A stretch of DNA of 64,000 nucleotides from Chryseobacterium balustinum (GTDB taxonomy: Bacteria > Bacteroidota > Bacteroidia > Flavobacteriales > Weeksellaceae), in assembly GCF_900168205.1 (NCBI RefSeq), contig NZ_FUZE01000018.1:1-64000 (forward strand). The letters are read 5' to 3'. The stretch's first letter is position 1. Every line of letters starts with the position of its first letter. The notes under the pieces are model-generated. The model had not been told where the DNA came from and made no database searches. It worked only from the letters and a program-made list of their open reading frames with translations. Below are positions 13,716-53,795 of the stretch, piece by piece. The position numbers and the translations under genes are program-made.

Positions 13716-15473
13716 TTACATTCTGTTTACAGTTCCTATTCCCAGTAAGCTTAATGATTTTTGTATTGTTTTGCCTGTTGCTTCAGATAAATTTAAACGG
13801 AATTGTTTTAAATCTTCATCTTCAAGTTTCAGAATCACATTGCTCTGATAAAATGAGTTGTAAGATTTCACCAAATCATATACATAATTGGCAACCAAAG
13901 CCGGGCTTAATAATTCTGCTGCTTTCTCAACAACAGTCTTATAGTTTGCTAAAAGTACAATAAGCTCTTTTTCAAATTCATTTAAAGAAACTTCGGCAAT
14001 ATCTTTGTATTCGTAATTTGCCTTCGCTATCAAAGACTGAATACGTGCATAAGTATATTGAATGAAAGGTCCTGTATTTCCGTTAAACTCAATACTTTCA
14101 GCCGGATTAAAGAGCATCTTTTTCTTTGGATCTACTTTCAGCATGAAATATTTTAACGCTCCTAAACCAACTGTTTCGTATGAAGATTCTTTTTCTTCAG
14201 GAGAAAGAGTTTCAAGCTTTCCTAATTCCTGAGACTTTGCTTTTGCAGTTTCATACATTTCCTGCATCAAATCATCCGCATCTACAACCGTACCTTCACG
14301 GGATTTCATTTTCCCTTCCGGAAGTTCAACCATTCCATAAGACAAATGATATAAATGATTTGCCCATTCATATCCTAATTTTCCTAAGATTTTAAATAAA
14401 ACCTGGAAATGATAATCCTGTTCGTTTCCTACCGTATAAATTAATTTCTGAATATTATTTTCTTTAAAACGCTCAACCGCCGTTCCCAGATCCTGAGTCA
14501 TATACACAGAAGTTCCGTCTGAACGAAGCAAAAGTTTCTCGTCTAAACCTTCATCCGTTAAATCACACCAAACTGAGCCGTCTTCTTTCTGATACAGCAC
14601 CCCTTTATCTAAACCTTCCTGAATAAGATCTTTTCCTAAAATATAAGTATTGCTTTCATACTGTACCTGATCGAAATCTACTCCCAATCTTTTATAAGTC
14701 TGATTGAAACCTTCATAAACCCAAGAGTTCATTTCAGCCCAAAGATTTCTTACTTTTTCATCGCCATTTTCCCAATCCAAAAGCATTTGTTGGGCTTCTT
14801 TCATTAAAGGAGCCTCTTTTTTAGCCTGATCTTCTGTGCTTCCATTCGCAATAAGTTCAGCTATTTCTTTTTTGTATTCCTGGTCAAATTTTACATAGTA
14901 GTTTCCTACAAATTTATCTCCTTTCGTTTCTGCATTCGGTGTTTCTCCTTTTCCAAATTTTTCCCAAGCCAACATCGATTTACAGATATGAATTCCTCTA
15001 TCGTTAATGATCTGACTTTTTATCACATCATAACCCGCTTCTTTAAGAATCTGAGCGACAGAAAAACCTAATAAGTTATTTCTGATATGACCTAAATGCA
15101 GCGGTTTGTTGGTATTTGGTGAAGAATATTCCACCATTACGGTCGCATTTTTCTTTTCTACATTTGAAAACTGTTCAGAAACCGTTCTAAACTGATCTAC
15201 GAAGAATTGGTTTTTAACTTTTACATTTAAAAATCCTTTTACCACATTAAAACTTTCAAGCAATTCAGTTTGAGTTGTTAATCCTTCTCCCAATTCCACC
15301 CCGATGCTTTCTGGGTTTTTCTTCAATTGTTTTACCAAAGGAAAGGTAACAATGGTAAAATCTCCCTCAAACTCAGTTTTATTTTCCTGGATTTCAAGTT
15401 TTATATCCTTCAACTGATAGACATTAAGGATAACCTCTGCCAGTTTTTGTTCTAATATGTCTTTAATATTCAT
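13716..15473 (-). CDS. argS: Arginyl-tRNA synthetase
   Basis: Class I aminoacyl-tRNA synthetase that charges tRNA-Arg in the cytosol. It has the N-terminal Add-1 domain, the HIGH-type motif HLGHIRNN after SSPNTNKPLH, a KMSKS-equivalent GKMKSREGTVV, and an all-helical anticodon-binding domain at the C-terminus (VSLNEFEKELIVLLANYKTV onward). I start it at MNIKDILEQK (585 residues); the frame opens 16 codons earlier, but that extension (MKLGLLLCIL...) is not part of the family and would be hydrophobic. Single gene with a convergent neighbour downstream. Confidence 0.95.
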   Translation of the reverse strand: MNIKDILEQKLAEVILNVYQLKDIKLEIQENKTEFEGDFTIVTFPLVKQLKKNPESIGVELGEGLTTQTELLESFNVVKGFLNVKVKNQFFVDQFRTVSEQFSNVEKKNATVMVEYSSPNTNKPLHLGHIRNNLLGFSVAQILKEAGYDVIKSQIINDRGIHICKSMLAWEKFGKGETPNAETKGDKFVGNYYVKFDQEYKKEIAELIANGSTEDQAKKEAPLMKEAQQMLLDWENGDEKVRNLWAEMNSWVYEGFNQTYKRLGVDFDQVQYESNTYILGKDLIQEGLDKGVLYQKEDGSVWCDLTDEGLDEKLLLRSDGTSVYMTQDLGTAVERFKENNIQKLIYTVGNEQDYHFQVLFKILGKLGYEWANHLYHLSYGMVELPEGKMKSREGTVVDADDLMQEMYETAKAKSQELGKLETLSPEEKESSYETVGLGALKYFMLKVDPKKKMLFNPAESIEFNGNTGPFIQYTYARIQSLIAKANYEYKDIAEVSLNEFEKELIVLLANYKTVVEKAAELLSPALVANYVYDLVKSYNSFYQSNVILKLEDEDLKQFRLNLSEATGKTIQKSLSLLGIGTVNRM

Positions 15474-15558
15474 GAGCTTATATTCATTTTTTAGGATACA
15501 TAGAAGTAATCCTAATTTCATATCACAATTTTCAAGTACAAATTTAGTGAAATAAAAA

Positions 15559-15578
15559 AGACTTCGTTAACGAAGCCT
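15559..15578 (-). terminator. Terminator of the double-glycine peptide gene
   Basis: Leftward AGGCTTCG-TTAA-CGAAGTCT followed by six T residues, directly after the stop of the 44-residue peptide gene. A dedicated terminator supports that gene being real. Confidence 0.75.
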
Positions 15579-15589
15579 TTTAAAAATTG

Positions 15590-15724
15590 TTAAGGATTGA
15601 GACAATTATAGTCCCAACTTCTGCATTCTCTTAATATGGGATTCCAACTTAAACAGCATGCAGGAGCTTGCCCACCTTGAATTTTTCTAAGATCTTTTTT
15701 AGAAAGCTTTTTTAAATTTTTCAT
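15590..15724 (-). CDS. Small double-glycine leader (bacteriocin-like) peptide
   Basis: Forty-four residues that begin MKNLKKLSKKDLRKIQGG. This is a classic GG-type leader (K-x-L-S-x-x-x-L-x-x-I-x-GG), cleaved and exported by C39-peptidase ABC transporters. The mature part is about 26 residues with four cysteines (QAPACC, REC, YNC), suggesting disulfides or modification. Such peptides are frequent and scattered in Chryseobacterium-type genomes and usually annotated as bacteriocin-like. No transporter or modification gene is adjacent, so export would rely on a distant system. Antimicrobial activity is inference; a signalling role is equally possible. Confidence 0.7.
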   Translation of the reverse strand: MKNLKKLSKKDLRKIQGGQAPACCLSWNPILRECRSWDYNCLNP

Positions 15725-15767
15725 AAATATTTTATTTTAAATGGTTAGTAAAAGTATCGCTGAATAT

Positions 15768-15795
15768 ATTAAAACCGCACTAAGGCGGTTTTAAT
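15768..15795 (-). terminator. Terminator of the first SusC/SusD operon
   Basis: Perfect 11-bp stem ATTAAAACCGC / GCGGTTTTAAT with a 6-base loop, 15 bases downstream of the SusD-like stop. Confidence 0.75.
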
Positions 15796-15809
15796 ATGGA
15801 TGTTAAAAA

Positions 15810-41718: not shown

Positions 41719-42702
41719 ATGGCAAAAACAGTAGATAAAGCATTTAGTGAATTTAATACAGAAACCGTGAATTTAAACCCAGATAGAACATCAAAAGCCA
41801 AGTCGAGTCGTGATTGGTTATGGGGTCAATTAAATGCATTGGATTCTAAAGAAGGTTTAGAGTTTCCTTTCAAAAATCATTATAAACATATAAAATTTGG
41901 ATCTTTCGCAAGGAAAACAAAAATTCGAGAACTTGATGATATTGATATAATGTTTTGTTTTACTGCAAATGATGCAACTTACTCACAATCTGGTAATACA
42001 TATTATATACAGACTATAAATGCTGGTGAAAGACTAAAAAAATTATCAGATAATAACATTTTAAATTCAAAAAAGGTTGTAAATAAAGTAAAAAATTCTC
42101 TTTCAGAAATTGAACATTACAAATCTGCAGAAATTCACTCAAGAGGTGAAGCCGCTACACTAAGCCTTCAAAGTTATGAGTGGGTTTTCGATATTGTTCC
42201 TTGTTTTTATACAGACACTAATCTTTATCTTATTCCAGATGGTAATGGAAATTGGAAGTCTACTGATCCTCGAATTGATCAAGATTTAATCACATCTACA
42301 AATCAGAATTATGATGGCAAATTATTACAACTAATTAGAACTTTAAAATATTGGAATAAACATAATTCTTCTTATATTATTGGATCATATCTTTTTGAAC
42401 AGTTTGTAATTAATTTTGCAAAAACAAAAGCAGAATTATCTAAATGGATAGATTTTGATATTAGAGATTTTTTTTATTATCTAAAAAATCATATTTATAA
42501 TAATGTTAACGATCCAAAAGGTATTCAAGGAAACTTGAATAATCTTACCTTTGAACAAAAATATTCAATATCAAACAAAGCTAATTGGGCTTATGATAAA
42601 GCTGTAGAGGCTATAAATGCAGAAACAAAGGATTCACATCAAGAAAAAGCTATAAATAAGTGGCGTGAAATATTTGGAACTAAATTTCCAATTTATGAAT
42701 AA
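41719..42702 (+). CDS. CD-NTase (cGAS/DncV-like cyclic-nucleotide synthase), CBASS
   Basis: 327-residue nucleotidyltransferase of the SMODS/CD-NTase type that in CBASS makes a cyclic di- or tri-nucleotide alarm when phage infects. The polymerase-beta core is intact: GS at residues 61-62 (HIKFGSFARKTKIRELDDID), metal-binding Asp74 and Asp76 (DDIDIMF), third acidic residue Asp158 (EWVFDIVPCF). A C-terminal helical domain follows (KLLQLIRTLKYWNKHNSSYI). Its stop overlaps the start of a four-helix membrane protein by 8 bases, a tight effector coupling. No HORMA, Trip13, Cap2 or Cap3 genes, so this is a minimal two-gene (type I-like) system. The nucleotide product is not predictable by eye. Confidence 0.85.
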   Translation: MAKTVDKAFSEFNTETVNLNPDRTSKAKSSRDWLWGQLNALDSKEGLEFPFKNHYKHIKFGSFARKTKIRELDDIDIMFCFTANDATYSQSGNTYYIQTINAGERLKKLSDNNILNSKKVVNKVKNSLSEIEHYKSAEIHSRGEAATLSLQSYEWVFDIVPCFYTDTNLYLIPDGNGNWKSTDPRIDQDLITSTNQNYDGKLLQLIRTLKYWNKHNSSYIIGSYLFEQFVINFAKTKAELSKWIDFDIRDFFYYLKNHIYNNVNDPKGIQGNLNNLTFEQKYSISNKANWAYDKAVEAINAETKDSHQEKAINKWREIFGTKFPIYE

Positions 42703-43600
42703 AGGAAAAGATATATTCAATAGACAAAATTTAGCTATAAACATTGATAAACTTCTTGCTCAAAGAAGATTATACTCTAATGCAAAAAAGGTAAATTACT
42801 TTCTTATTTGTCTCACGGTGATTATACCCATAATTATTTCATTAATAACTAATCTTACAATAATTGAAATTAATGACAAACATTGGATTTATGTTTTATT
42901 CACTGTCTTTGCAATTATTTTAGAAAAAATTTTTGAAATTTATATAGATAGATGCAAAAAAACGGCCGCTTCAATTCAAGAAGATTTTGATACAACAATT
43001 TTTCCACTTCCTGAAAATGAATTGCTAAATACTACATATGTTGATGCAGATATAATTAGATATTACTCAAAGAAAGATAAAAACAACAATAAAAAGGTTG
43101 AAAAGGTAACCAGTTGGTATTCGAAAGAAATTAAAAATATTGATACAAACATTGCTATATTATTTTGTCAAAGAATGAATATTTGCTATGATCAAAATAT
43201 TAAAAAGAAATACAATATACTTCTTATCATACTGTCAATTTTGACATTTCTTATTTTATTAAGTTTTTCACTATCAAATAATTTTTCTTTAATGAAGTTT
43301 ATGATAGAAGTAGTTTTACCTTCAATTCCAATATTTAATTTCACATATAAAGAATTTAACACCAACTTAGAATCAGTTGATAATCTTCAAAAACTCAGAG
43401 AAATTATTGAAGAAAATTTGAACTCAATTTCTCTGAACGACTCTATTAGTACTGAAGAACTTCGTAGAATACAAGATAGAATTTATCAAAATAGAATATT
43501 AAGTCCTTTAATTCCTGACTTCATTTATAGTTTTTTATGGAGCAAATTAGAAGATCAAATGAATTATTCTGTTAAAACTAAAATAGAAGAAATTAGCTAA
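42695..43600 (+). CDS. S-4TM-type putative pore-forming CBASS effector
   Basis: 301 residues from MNKGKDIFNRQN (ATG inside the CD-NTase stop region; the longer frame copies the cyclase's 3' end). Two pairs of membrane helices are clear: about 35-57 and 64-84, then 173-194 and 199-218, with soluble parts between and after (SWYSKEIKNIDTNIAILFCQ; C-terminal helical tail). This matches the predicted SMODS-associated 4TM effector family, thought to breach the inner membrane when the cyclic nucleotide binds and so kill the infected cell. Assignment rests on architecture and partner gene; nucleotide sensing is inferred. Confidence 0.75.
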   Translation: MNKGKDIFNRQNLAINIDKLLAQRRLYSNAKKVNYFLICLTVIIPIIISLITNLTIIEINDKHWIYVLFTVFAIILEKIFEIYIDRCKKTAASIQEDFDTTIFPLPENELLNTTYVDADIIRYYSKKDKNNNKKVEKVTSWYSKEIKNIDTNIAILFCQRMNICYDQNIKKKYNILLIILSILTFLILLSFSLSNNFSLMKFMIEVVLPSIPIFNFTYKEFNTNLESVDNLQKLREIIEENLNSISLNDSISTEELRRIQDRIYQNRILSPLIPDFIYSFLWSKLEDQMNYSVKTKIEEIS

Positions 43601-52523: not shown

Positions 52524-52896
52524 TTGGTTGTATTTTAATCAATTGTTGGATGAGCCTCTCAAACTCGATATCTACTATTGATTCTTTGTCTTTTTTTATT
52601 TTTTTGTTCAATTTTTTAAACTCTATGTAGTCTTTAGATAATTCAAGTAATGCACAAATTCGTATAGTTCTAAGTAGAATAGATTCGTTTTCAAGATAAT
52701 CTAAAGGTTTAATTTTTTCTAAGTCTCTACCATTCTTATTTAGTTCTTGAAGTATATCACTATCTTTAATTGTGTCAAGTACATACGTTTTAAAGAATTC
52801 ATTCAAAAGACTATTGTCTTTAAATTTCTTGTCATATTGCTTTTTGAATTCTTGAAATACTCTTTCTTTCATGTCTTCGCTGTTAACGATTGCCAA
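52510..52896 (-). CDS. 128-residue helical protein overlapping the transposase gene, IS cargo
   Basis: Begins MAIVNSEDMKERVFQEFKKQ; charged and helical (SILLRTIRICALLELSKDYI, LNKKIKKDKESIVDIEFERL). The start lies 28 bases inside the 3' end of the transposase gene, so the two are translated from one message. Candidates are a transposition accessory or regulator, or an unrelated passenger. No DNA-binding motif is obvious to me. Confidence 0.65.
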   Translation of the reverse strand: MAIVNSEDMKERVFQEFKKQYDKKFKDNSLLNEFFKTYVLDTIKDSDILQELNKNGRDLEKIKPLDYLENESILLRTIRICALLELSKDYIEFKKLNKKIKKDKESIVDIEFERLIQQLIKIQPKSPN

Positions 52897-53795
52897 GTTA
52901 ATCTTTTTTGTTGAGTTTTTTCTAAGTACATTTCAAATCTTTTATCAGTAAGCAGTTCTTTTGTGTTGTATCTAAACGTCATTTCATTAAGATATAACTG
53001 TAAATGTCTCTTACTCGTTTTGTAATAAACTCCAATAATTGAACGCTTCAAATGTGACCAAAAGCATTCTATTGCATTAGTTGTTGTTCCTTCATCTGCA
53101 TATTGTTTCTTTGCATGGTCAACATATGTATGAGTGTGGAAATAGTTTCCTATGTTTTTGTAAGCATGCCATTCATCAGTCATTACATGAGAATCTCGAT
53201 TGATATGTTGATACAATAAAGGTTTAATTGTTCTTCCTTTTGTATCTGAAACAACTATTGCTTTTACCCATCCTGTTGATTCTTCTATTGCTCCGAATAC
53301 AGGAACTTTATCCTTGAAACTTCTACCTTGTGACTGAGGAACCTTTTTGTCTTTGTGGCGGTTTTTGTTTTTACCACCGACAAAAGTTTCATCACATTGT
53401 ACAACCCCTTCGAATTCTTTCTGAAATGATTCATGTTCAGTTGCGTATCTTAATCTCTGTAATATAAACCATGCCGTTTTTTGAGTCACTGCTAAATCAC
53501 GGGCTAATTGATAACTACTAATACCTCGCTTATGAGAAGTATACAGATATATACCAATAAACCAATTTTGTAATGATATTTTAGAGCCTTCAAAAATAGT
53601 ATTTGTCCTTGCATTAAAATACTTTCCTGTATTTTTACATTTGTATCTGTTATCCTTACATACATAAACTTTTGAAGTAGTATCAAATGGGCTTACAACT
53701 CCATTTTTCCAGCGAAGTTGTGTAAGATAATCAATACAAGACTGTTCATTAGGAAAAGCCCTAATTAGGTCTAAAATACTCGAAAATTTAAGCAT
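52869..53795 (-). CDS. IS1595-family (ISXO2-like) transposase
   Basis: 308-residue DDE-type transposase. A degenerate N-terminal zinc ribbon (Cys46, Cys53, YVCKDNRYKCKNTGKYF) precedes a helix-turn-helix, then the ISXO2 catalytic core: Asp135 in VVQCDETFVGGKNKNRH, Asp207 in VMTDEWHAY, and Asn240/Glu243 in TTTNAIECFWSHLKR. All key residues are present and the frame is unbroken, so it may be active. The gene reads leftward from near the right end of the element. Confidence 0.93.
   Translation of the reverse strand: MLKFSSILDLIRAFPNEQSCIDYLTQLRWKNGVVSPFDTTSKVYVCKDNRYKCKNTGKYFNARTNTIFEGSKISLQNWFIGIYLYTSHKRGISSYQLARDLAVTQKTAWFILQRLRYATEHESFQKEFEGVVQCDETFVGGKNKNRHKDKKVPQSQGRSFKDKVPVFGAIEESTGWVKAIVVSDTKGRTIKPLLYQHINRDSHVMTDEWHAYKNIGNYFHTHTYVDHAKKQYADEGTTTNAIECFWSHLKRSIIGVYYKTSKRHLQLYLNEMTFRYNTKELLTDKRFEMYLEKTQQKRLTWQSLTAKT

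What the first reader, a model, noticed from the sequence alone, without database searches (positions are those of the whole stretch)
15559..15724. Overlooked double-glycine leader peptide gene
A 44-residue frame with an ideal GG leader, four cysteines in the mature part and its own terminator lies downstream of argS. It is a candidate bacteriocin or signalling peptide that size cut-offs miss.
Basis: partly seen in the sequence, partly recalled or inferred. Interest (0 to 1): 0.5.

Follow-up and report, generated by a model that had tools for sequence, protein, structure and literature searches.

The report
Secreted cysteine-rich peptide gene in Chryseobacterium
A tiny gene beside a housekeeping gene encodes a peptide that the bacterium very probably cuts, disulfide-bonds and exports; it is one of a dozen or more such peptides in this genome, most likely small weapons or signals, of a family that databases already name but that no paper seen here describes.

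Summary
The 44-codon gene is real (window 15590-15724, minus strand). Its leader passes NCBI's "leader_Chryseo / bacteriocin-like protein" model, its four cysteines are invariant in ten orthologues, its core is under purifying selection and its terminator is conserved. One error: the gene lies 5' (upstream) of argS, not downstream.

One C39 exporter is clustered with a VKOR-thioredoxin oxidase, a HlyD adaptor and seven full-length GG peptides. In 128 Chryseobacterium genomes all 8 without that oxidase lack the leaders and 118 of the other 120 have them, up to 48 each. Mature parts nearly always carry an even number of cysteines (18 of 19 here, 57 of 59 in three other genomes).

Most likely this is a stand-alone precursor, exported in trans, cut after GG and locked by two disulfides (0.85). 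A bacteroidetocin-like antagonistic role is my best guess (about 0.5), signalling the main rival; neutral charge and no recognised immunity gene count against a classic bacteriocin. New member of a known kind, with an interesting genus-wide system behind it.

The parts
15590..15724 (-). precursor gene, 44 codons plus stop
   Evidence: NF047798 31.9 bits; ten orthologues
15671..15724 (-). double-glycine leader, 18 residues, ends in GG
15593..15670 (-). predicted mature peptide, 26 residues, four Cys (positions 23, 24, 34, 41 of the precursor)
   Evidence: four Cys, two Trp and Pro21/Pro29 invariant in 10 of 10 orthologues; dN/dS about 0.07 in 9 of them
15556..15581 (-). intrinsic terminator of the peptide gene
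   Evidence: stem in 10 of 10 orthologue loci
15760..15805 (-). hairpin between the SusD-like gene and the peptide gene, probably the terminator of the former
   Evidence: -15.4 kcal/mol, z -6.8; not listed by the pattern scan
13716..15473 (-). argS, 3' neighbour; not part of the system, marks the conserved site
   Evidence: name from the sequence

Best explanation
The gene is a stand-alone precursor of a secreted 26-residue peptide. The leader docks on the C39 domain of the ABC exporter encoded on contig C62; the exporter cuts after Gly-Gly and moves the core across the inner membrane; the VKOR-thioredoxin protein of that cluster drives oxidation of the four cysteines to two disulfides; the HlyD adaptor passes the peptide outward. 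I put export plus disulfides at 0.85. Outside the cell it most likely acts as one of many narrow antagonistic peptides against related Bacteroidota, as bacteroidetocins do (about 0.5). Shown here: the gene, its conservation, the exporter module, the co-occurrence and the cysteine parity. Inferred: cleavage, oxidation, export in trans, activity.
For: Leader over the NF047798 cut-off. Ten full-length orthologues, 64-98% identical to ours, at the same argS-side site. Four Cys invariant in 10 of 10. Core dN/dS about 0.07 over 9 of the 10. C62 cluster of VKOR-thioredoxin, C39 ABC exporter, HlyD and seven full-length GG peptides, six of them over cut-off. In 128 genomes, leaders in 0 of 8 without and 118 of 120 with the oxidase orthologue; that gene lies within 10 kb of a listed C39 match in 107 of 120. 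Even cysteine number in 18 of 19 own cores and 57 of 59 in G049, G265 and G327, against 5 of 12 window ORFs with 3 or more Cys. A similar core beside a VKOR protein in another family. Bacteroidetocins show that such a GG peptide, C39 exporter and thiol oxidoreductase can make an antibacterial peptide (PMC6671954, passages).
Against: No expression, mass or activity data. The exporter is on another contig, so the pairing is inferred, and a second C39 protein exists (C68). Net charge 0, and -1 to +1 in the ten orthologues. No immunity gene recognised. The slow core evolution fits a signal or a fixed target as well as a toxin. G029 and G089 have the oxidase and a C39 protein but no leader over cut-off. 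The co-occurrence p-value ignores relatedness. In G161 lanthipeptide enzymes share the locus, so the modification there is uncertain.
Confidence: 0.5

Rival explanations
1. Exported signalling peptide of the ComC/BlpC kind, sensed by a kinase encoded elsewhere, controlling group behaviour.
For: Strong conservation of the core; weak similarity of the leader region to ComC and EntF induction-factor models, far below their cut-offs; GG peptides are used as signals in other bacteria (established knowledge).
Against: No kinase or regulator recognised next to the gene or in the 15 kb around the C62 cluster (read by eye, not scanned gene by gene); dozens of different cores per genome are hard to square with one signal each; disulfide-locked cores are unlike linear Gram-positive pheromones (recalled).
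Confidence: 0.25
2. Exported disulfide peptide with another job: protease inhibitor, effector toward a eukaryotic host or grazer, or envelope component.
For: Small Cys-rich cores of many kinds, mostly neutral to acidic, suit binding proteins; AlphaFold2 suggests a hairpin at 24-28 and 33-37 at modest confidence (pLDDT 71.7, pTM 0.38).
Against: No fold or sequence match in the PDB; nothing positive points to a particular target.
Confidence: 0.15
3. Leader peptide that attenuates argS, not a secreted product.
For: The ten orthologues all lie 5' of argS, with a terminator between.
Against: Only three scattered Arg codons; a TAAATTTG box, like the Bacteroidota -7 element (recalled), follows the terminator in 10 of 10 loci, so argS seems to have its own promoter; 97 of 127 genomes show no such hit 5' of argS, and in 12 of the 30 with hits a peptide lies on the opposite strand; siblings and a similar core lie elsewhere.
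Confidence: 0.04
4. Chance ORF or decayed gene without product.
For: Short; no expression data; four of ten orthologues have an exact TATATTTG box 5' of the gene but the window's own copy does not.
Against: Purifying selection, invariant Cys and Trp, conserved terminator.
Confidence: 0.03

Closest known systems
NCBIfam NF047798 leader_Chryseo, 'bacteriocin-like protein'
   Same: The leader is a member: 31.9 bits against a cut-off of 23.5.
   Different: The model covers only the 18-residue leader and says nothing of core, export or function.
Bacteroidetocins (PMC6671954, passages read; PMC8546649, abstract read)
   Same: Bacteroidota GG-leader peptide with four Cys; C39 exporter and thiol oxidoreductase in the system; no immunity gene recognised.
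   Different: Leader 18 instead of 15-16 residues, core 26 instead of 42, net charge 0 instead of +2 and +6; gene unlinked to exporter and oxidase; no five-TM partner recognised; many precursors per genome.
Class IIa and other GG-leader bacteriocins of Gram-positive bacteria
   Same: GG leader and C39 exporter logic.
   Different: No YGNGV motif in the core; no adjacent exporter or recognised immunity gene; not cationic.
ComC/BlpC-type double-glycine pheromones
   Same: GG leader and C39 export.
   Different: No adjacent sensor kinase recognised; Cys-rich core; dozens of siblings.
Graspetides of Chryseobacterium such as chryseoviridin (PMC8939145, passages read)
   Same: Same genus; peptide precursors, GG motifs in part of them.
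   Different: Those are cyclised by ATP-grasp enzymes; none was recognised next to this gene, and the paired-Cys core with an oxidase points to disulfides.

Membership tests
NF047798 leader_Chryseo | leader score over the curated cut-off | tested here: met
   31.9 bits vs 23.5
GG-leader peptide exported by a C39 ABC protein | C39 exporter in the genome | tested here: met
   two Peptidase_C39 matches, 125.7 and 107.3 bits; C62 one is a full ABC exporter
GG-leader peptide exported by a C39 ABC protein | cleavage after GG and export | not testable with these tools
   needs mass spectrometry
Bacteroidetocin (proposed class IIf) | leader of 15-16 residues, similar-sized core (42 in the two first described) | tested here: not met
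   18 and 26 residues (PMC6671954 passages)
[quoted passage not shown]
   neighbours are argS and SusC/SusD-like genes; exporter and oxidase are on contig C62
Bacteroidetocin (proposed class IIf) | kills Bacteroidales | not testable with these tools
   no activity data
Class IIa bacteriocin | YGNGV motif in the core | tested here: not met
   sequence
Class II bacteriocin, general | cationic core | tested here: not met
   net charge 0; -1 to +1 in ten orthologues
Class II bacteriocin, general | cognate immunity gene | tested here: inconclusive
   none recognised next to the gene, but no dedicated search was made and bacteroidetocins lack one too
ComC/BlpC-type pheromone | adjacent sensor kinase and regulator | tested here: not met
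   none recognised by eye among the window ORFs around the gene
Attenuator leader peptide of argS | run of cognate codons and strict linkage to argS | tested here: not met
   three scattered Arg; 97 of 127 genomes without a hit 5' of argS

The most novel reading that the evidence does not exclude
Chryseobacterium and some relatives run a genome-wide peptide arsenal: up to dozens of mostly unlinked GG precursors per genome, nearly all with an even number of cysteines, served in trans by one VKOR-coupled C39 exporter. The argS side is one of its old homes, and its core has been carried on different leader types across families.
Probability: 0.4. Interest if true: 0.6.

Novelty: new member of a known kind. 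Interest (0 to 1): 0.42.

Why it matters
If the reading holds, a common environmental genus keeps a large, apparently unstudied stock of small disulfide-locked peptides with one shared maturation and export route. Deleting one exporter or one oxidase would then show at once what the whole stock does, and the peptides would be candidates for narrow antimicrobials against Bacteroidota.

Tried and rejected
Rejected: the argS attenuator reading; the chance-ORF reading; a plasmid or virus origin (no match in 72,556 plasmid records at E 1; 600 pattern matches in viral contigs, none confirmed). The PDB sequence search gave three hits, all at E 0.7 or worse. AlphaFold2 gave pLDDT 71.7 and pTM 0.38 and Foldseek against the PDB nothing at E 10; no weight is put on the model. 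The C68 exporter was considered and set aside as partner: it sits with a SPASM-type radical SAM protein and a different precursor, but this is not proof. A core search in 395 genomes of the order found matches at E 0.01 in 10; apart from the own core and that of G161, both of which were in the query alignment, the other eight are weak (E 7e-4 to 0.009).

Dropped rows and limits: dN/dS leaves out L012, one residue shorter, so 9 of 10. G053, whose only oxidase hit is distant (4.5e-39), was counted as lacking it. The C39 listing was cut by the tool, so for 13 of 120 genomes adjacency was not shown: 6 without a listed C39 match and 7 with listed matches farther away or on other contigs. Own-genome parity uses 19 of the 25 matches: all 16 over cut-off and 3 below; left out are L052 (no clean start), L053 (21 residues) and the four weakest, L054-L057. 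G049 gave 30 of its 34 matches. Core borders were set by a pattern.

Full report
What is there. On the minus strand at 15724-15590 lies a 44-codon ORF, MKNLKKLSKKDLRKIQGG|QAPACCLSWNPILRECRSWDYNCLNP. In the direction of transcription the order is a SusD-like gene (17273-15810), the peptide gene, a terminator (15581-15556), argS (from 15473). The finding's 'downstream of argS' is therefore reversed. A second strong hairpin (15760-15805, -15.4 kcal/mol, z -6.8) lies between the SusD-like gene and the peptide gene, although the pattern scan did not list it. With it the gene looks like a single-gene unit. The names argS and SusD are mine from the sequences.

Is it more than chance. The leader passes NF047798 (31.9 bits, cut-off 23.5) and just passes TIGR01847 (15.8, cut-off 15.7). 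Among 197 related genomes nine besides our own carry a match of 42 or more residues at 64-98% identity. All ten loci have argS 3' of the peptide and a SusD-family match on the other side within the stretch fetched. In these ten, all four cysteines, both tryptophans and two prolines of the core are invariant. Over 9 of the 10, dN/dS is 0.07 in the core and 0.19 in the leader; synonymous sites in the core are near saturation (pS 0.67), so the ratio is rough. The terminator stem and, after it, a TAAATTTG box are in all ten loci; the box fits the Bacteroidota -7 element (recalled) and would be the promoter of argS. A TATATTTG box 5' of the peptide gene is in 4 of 10, not in the window's own copy.

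The export machinery. The genome (4.86 Mb, 72 contigs) has two Peptidase_C39 proteins, 16 leaders over the NF047798 cut-off and nine weaker matches. On contig C62, 163413-171156, lie a VKOR-thioredoxin protein, a C39 ABC exporter, a HlyD protein and seven full-length GG peptides (six over cut-off), plus a 21-residue one. The second C39 protein, on C68, sits with a SPASM-type radical SAM protein and a different precursor. The C62 exporter is the likelier partner of our peptide; that link is inferred.

Genus-wide test. The genus is Chryseobacterium: the nearest named record, Chryseobacterium sp. BGARF1, carries a 98% identical peptide. In 128 genomes of the genus, leaders over cut-off occur in 118, up to 48 in one genome; many genomes reached the limit of 64 scored candidates, so high counts are lower bounds. 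A C39 domain occurs in 125. The VKOR-thioredoxin protein has no match in 7 and only a distant one in G053. All 8 lack leaders; 118 of the other 120 have them (Fisher 3e-11). For C39 presence the same test gives 118 of 125 against 0 of 3 (p 4e-4). Relatedness is not corrected, so the p-values overstate the case. The two exceptions are G029, whose oxidase-exporter-HlyD cluster holds no GG peptide that my pattern recognised, and G089, whose contig ends at the cluster. The oxidase lies within 10 kb of a listed C39 match in 107 of 120 genomes, median gap 362 bases. In the family, 33 of 148 genomes have leaders (E 0.001), 14 of them outside the genus.

Cysteine parity. Of 19 own-genome cores examined, all have 4-8 Cys and 18 an even number. 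In G049 (same genus, 30 of its 34 matches), G265 (22 of 22) and G327 (7 of 7) 57 of 59 are even; the two others have 5 and 1 Cys. Among 37 window ORFs of 150 aa or more, 12 have at least 3 Cys and 5 of these are even. Homologous peptides are not independent, but the cores are diverse. With the VKOR link this argues for disulfide bonding as the trait the family shares.

The argS side. I read 1 kb 5' of argS in 127 of the 128 genomes (G202 had no argS match): 117 regions and the ten orthologue loci, placed. A tblastn search with eight peptide or leader queries at E 0.01 hits 30: the ten orthologues and 20 of 117 others. Of the 20, 12 have an opposite-strand form (NAPCCEPWG...) and 9 a same-strand one (G054 has both); G094 is a fragment, G062 has a damaged start and a second hit in G038 is cut by the region's edge. 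At the leader densities about one hit would be expected by chance (my estimate). So this intergenic region is an old home of such peptides, several with a similar AP..C..W pattern; in 97 of 127 genomes nothing was found there.

The core travels. In G161, of another family of the order, a core 46% identical (RVPLCCLQWKPTTQYCSKWDYSCLGN) follows a different leader type, which there carries an in-frame stop, among sibling GG peptides beside a 518-aa VKOR protein (50.7 bits). Lanthipeptide dehydratase and cyclase genes lie in the same stretch, so another modification cannot be excluded in that genome. C. edaphi has a similar core (MVPSCCITWNPRTRVCSSWDYSCLG) at a place without an argS match. G007 and G085 hold tandem arrays of 5 and 6 related precursors. 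So the core is kept on different leaders and at different sites.

Function. The closest studied system I found is the bacteroidetocins: GG leader, four Cys, C39 exporter and thiol oxidoreductase, no obvious immunity protein (PMC6671954, passages), killing by way of BamA (PMC8546649, abstract). Ours resembles them in maturation but misses their size, linkage and charge, so I do not file it there. I commit to an exported disulfide peptide (0.85), most likely antagonistic (about 0.5), with signalling at 0.25. No tool here can decide between these.

Literature. Searches for bacteroidetocins, the leader family and its accession, and Chryseobacterium or Flavobacteriaceae with GG-peptide terms listed no paper that I recognised as describing this family; I saw the listings (20 of 92, 20 of 21, all rows in the others). 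The library lacks most subscription journals, so this is weak evidence of absence.

Noticed in passing
window 41719-43600: CBASS-like pair: SMODS oligonucleotide cyclase (PADLOC Cyclase 451 bits, Pfam SMODS) followed by an S-4TM effector (PADLOC Effector 4TM 511 bits, Pfam S_4TM).
   Followed up: partly
window 52869-53795: IS1595-type transposase (Pfam DDE_Tnp_IS1595, 152.5 bits).
   Followed up: partly
L010 (G034) and L011 (G105), argS: ArgS carries an in-frame insertion of roughly 120 residues near residue 205-215; nine genomes show argS-start open frames of 695 codons or more, not checked.
   Followed up: partly
L183 (G161, 2256894-2264223): GG peptides of a second leader type (MLKxILxLEG...LSxxEQKxIxGG) beside a VKOR protein, with lanthipeptide dehydratase and LanC-like genes nearby; one copy has an in-frame stop in its leader.
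   Followed up: partly
L059 (G000 contig C68, 10490-15274): Separate peptide locus: C39 ABC protein, SPASM-type radical SAM protein (no full-length RiPP maturase model over cut-off) and a 59-aa precursor-like ORF with GG.
   Followed up: partly
L186 (G007) and L187 (G085): Tandem arrays of 5 and 6 GG precursors with P.GC..WD/WN...CC..W cores, between the same two flanking genes.
   Followed up: no
L184 (G029): Complete VKOR, C39 and HlyD cluster without a recognised GG peptide; either another leader type or an orphan exporter.
   Followed up: no
L040 (own genome) and L291 (G049): The odd-Cys exceptions are homologues of each other: a five-Cys core ending in CSDDFKCP(D/N)xSI kept in two genomes.
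   Followed up: no
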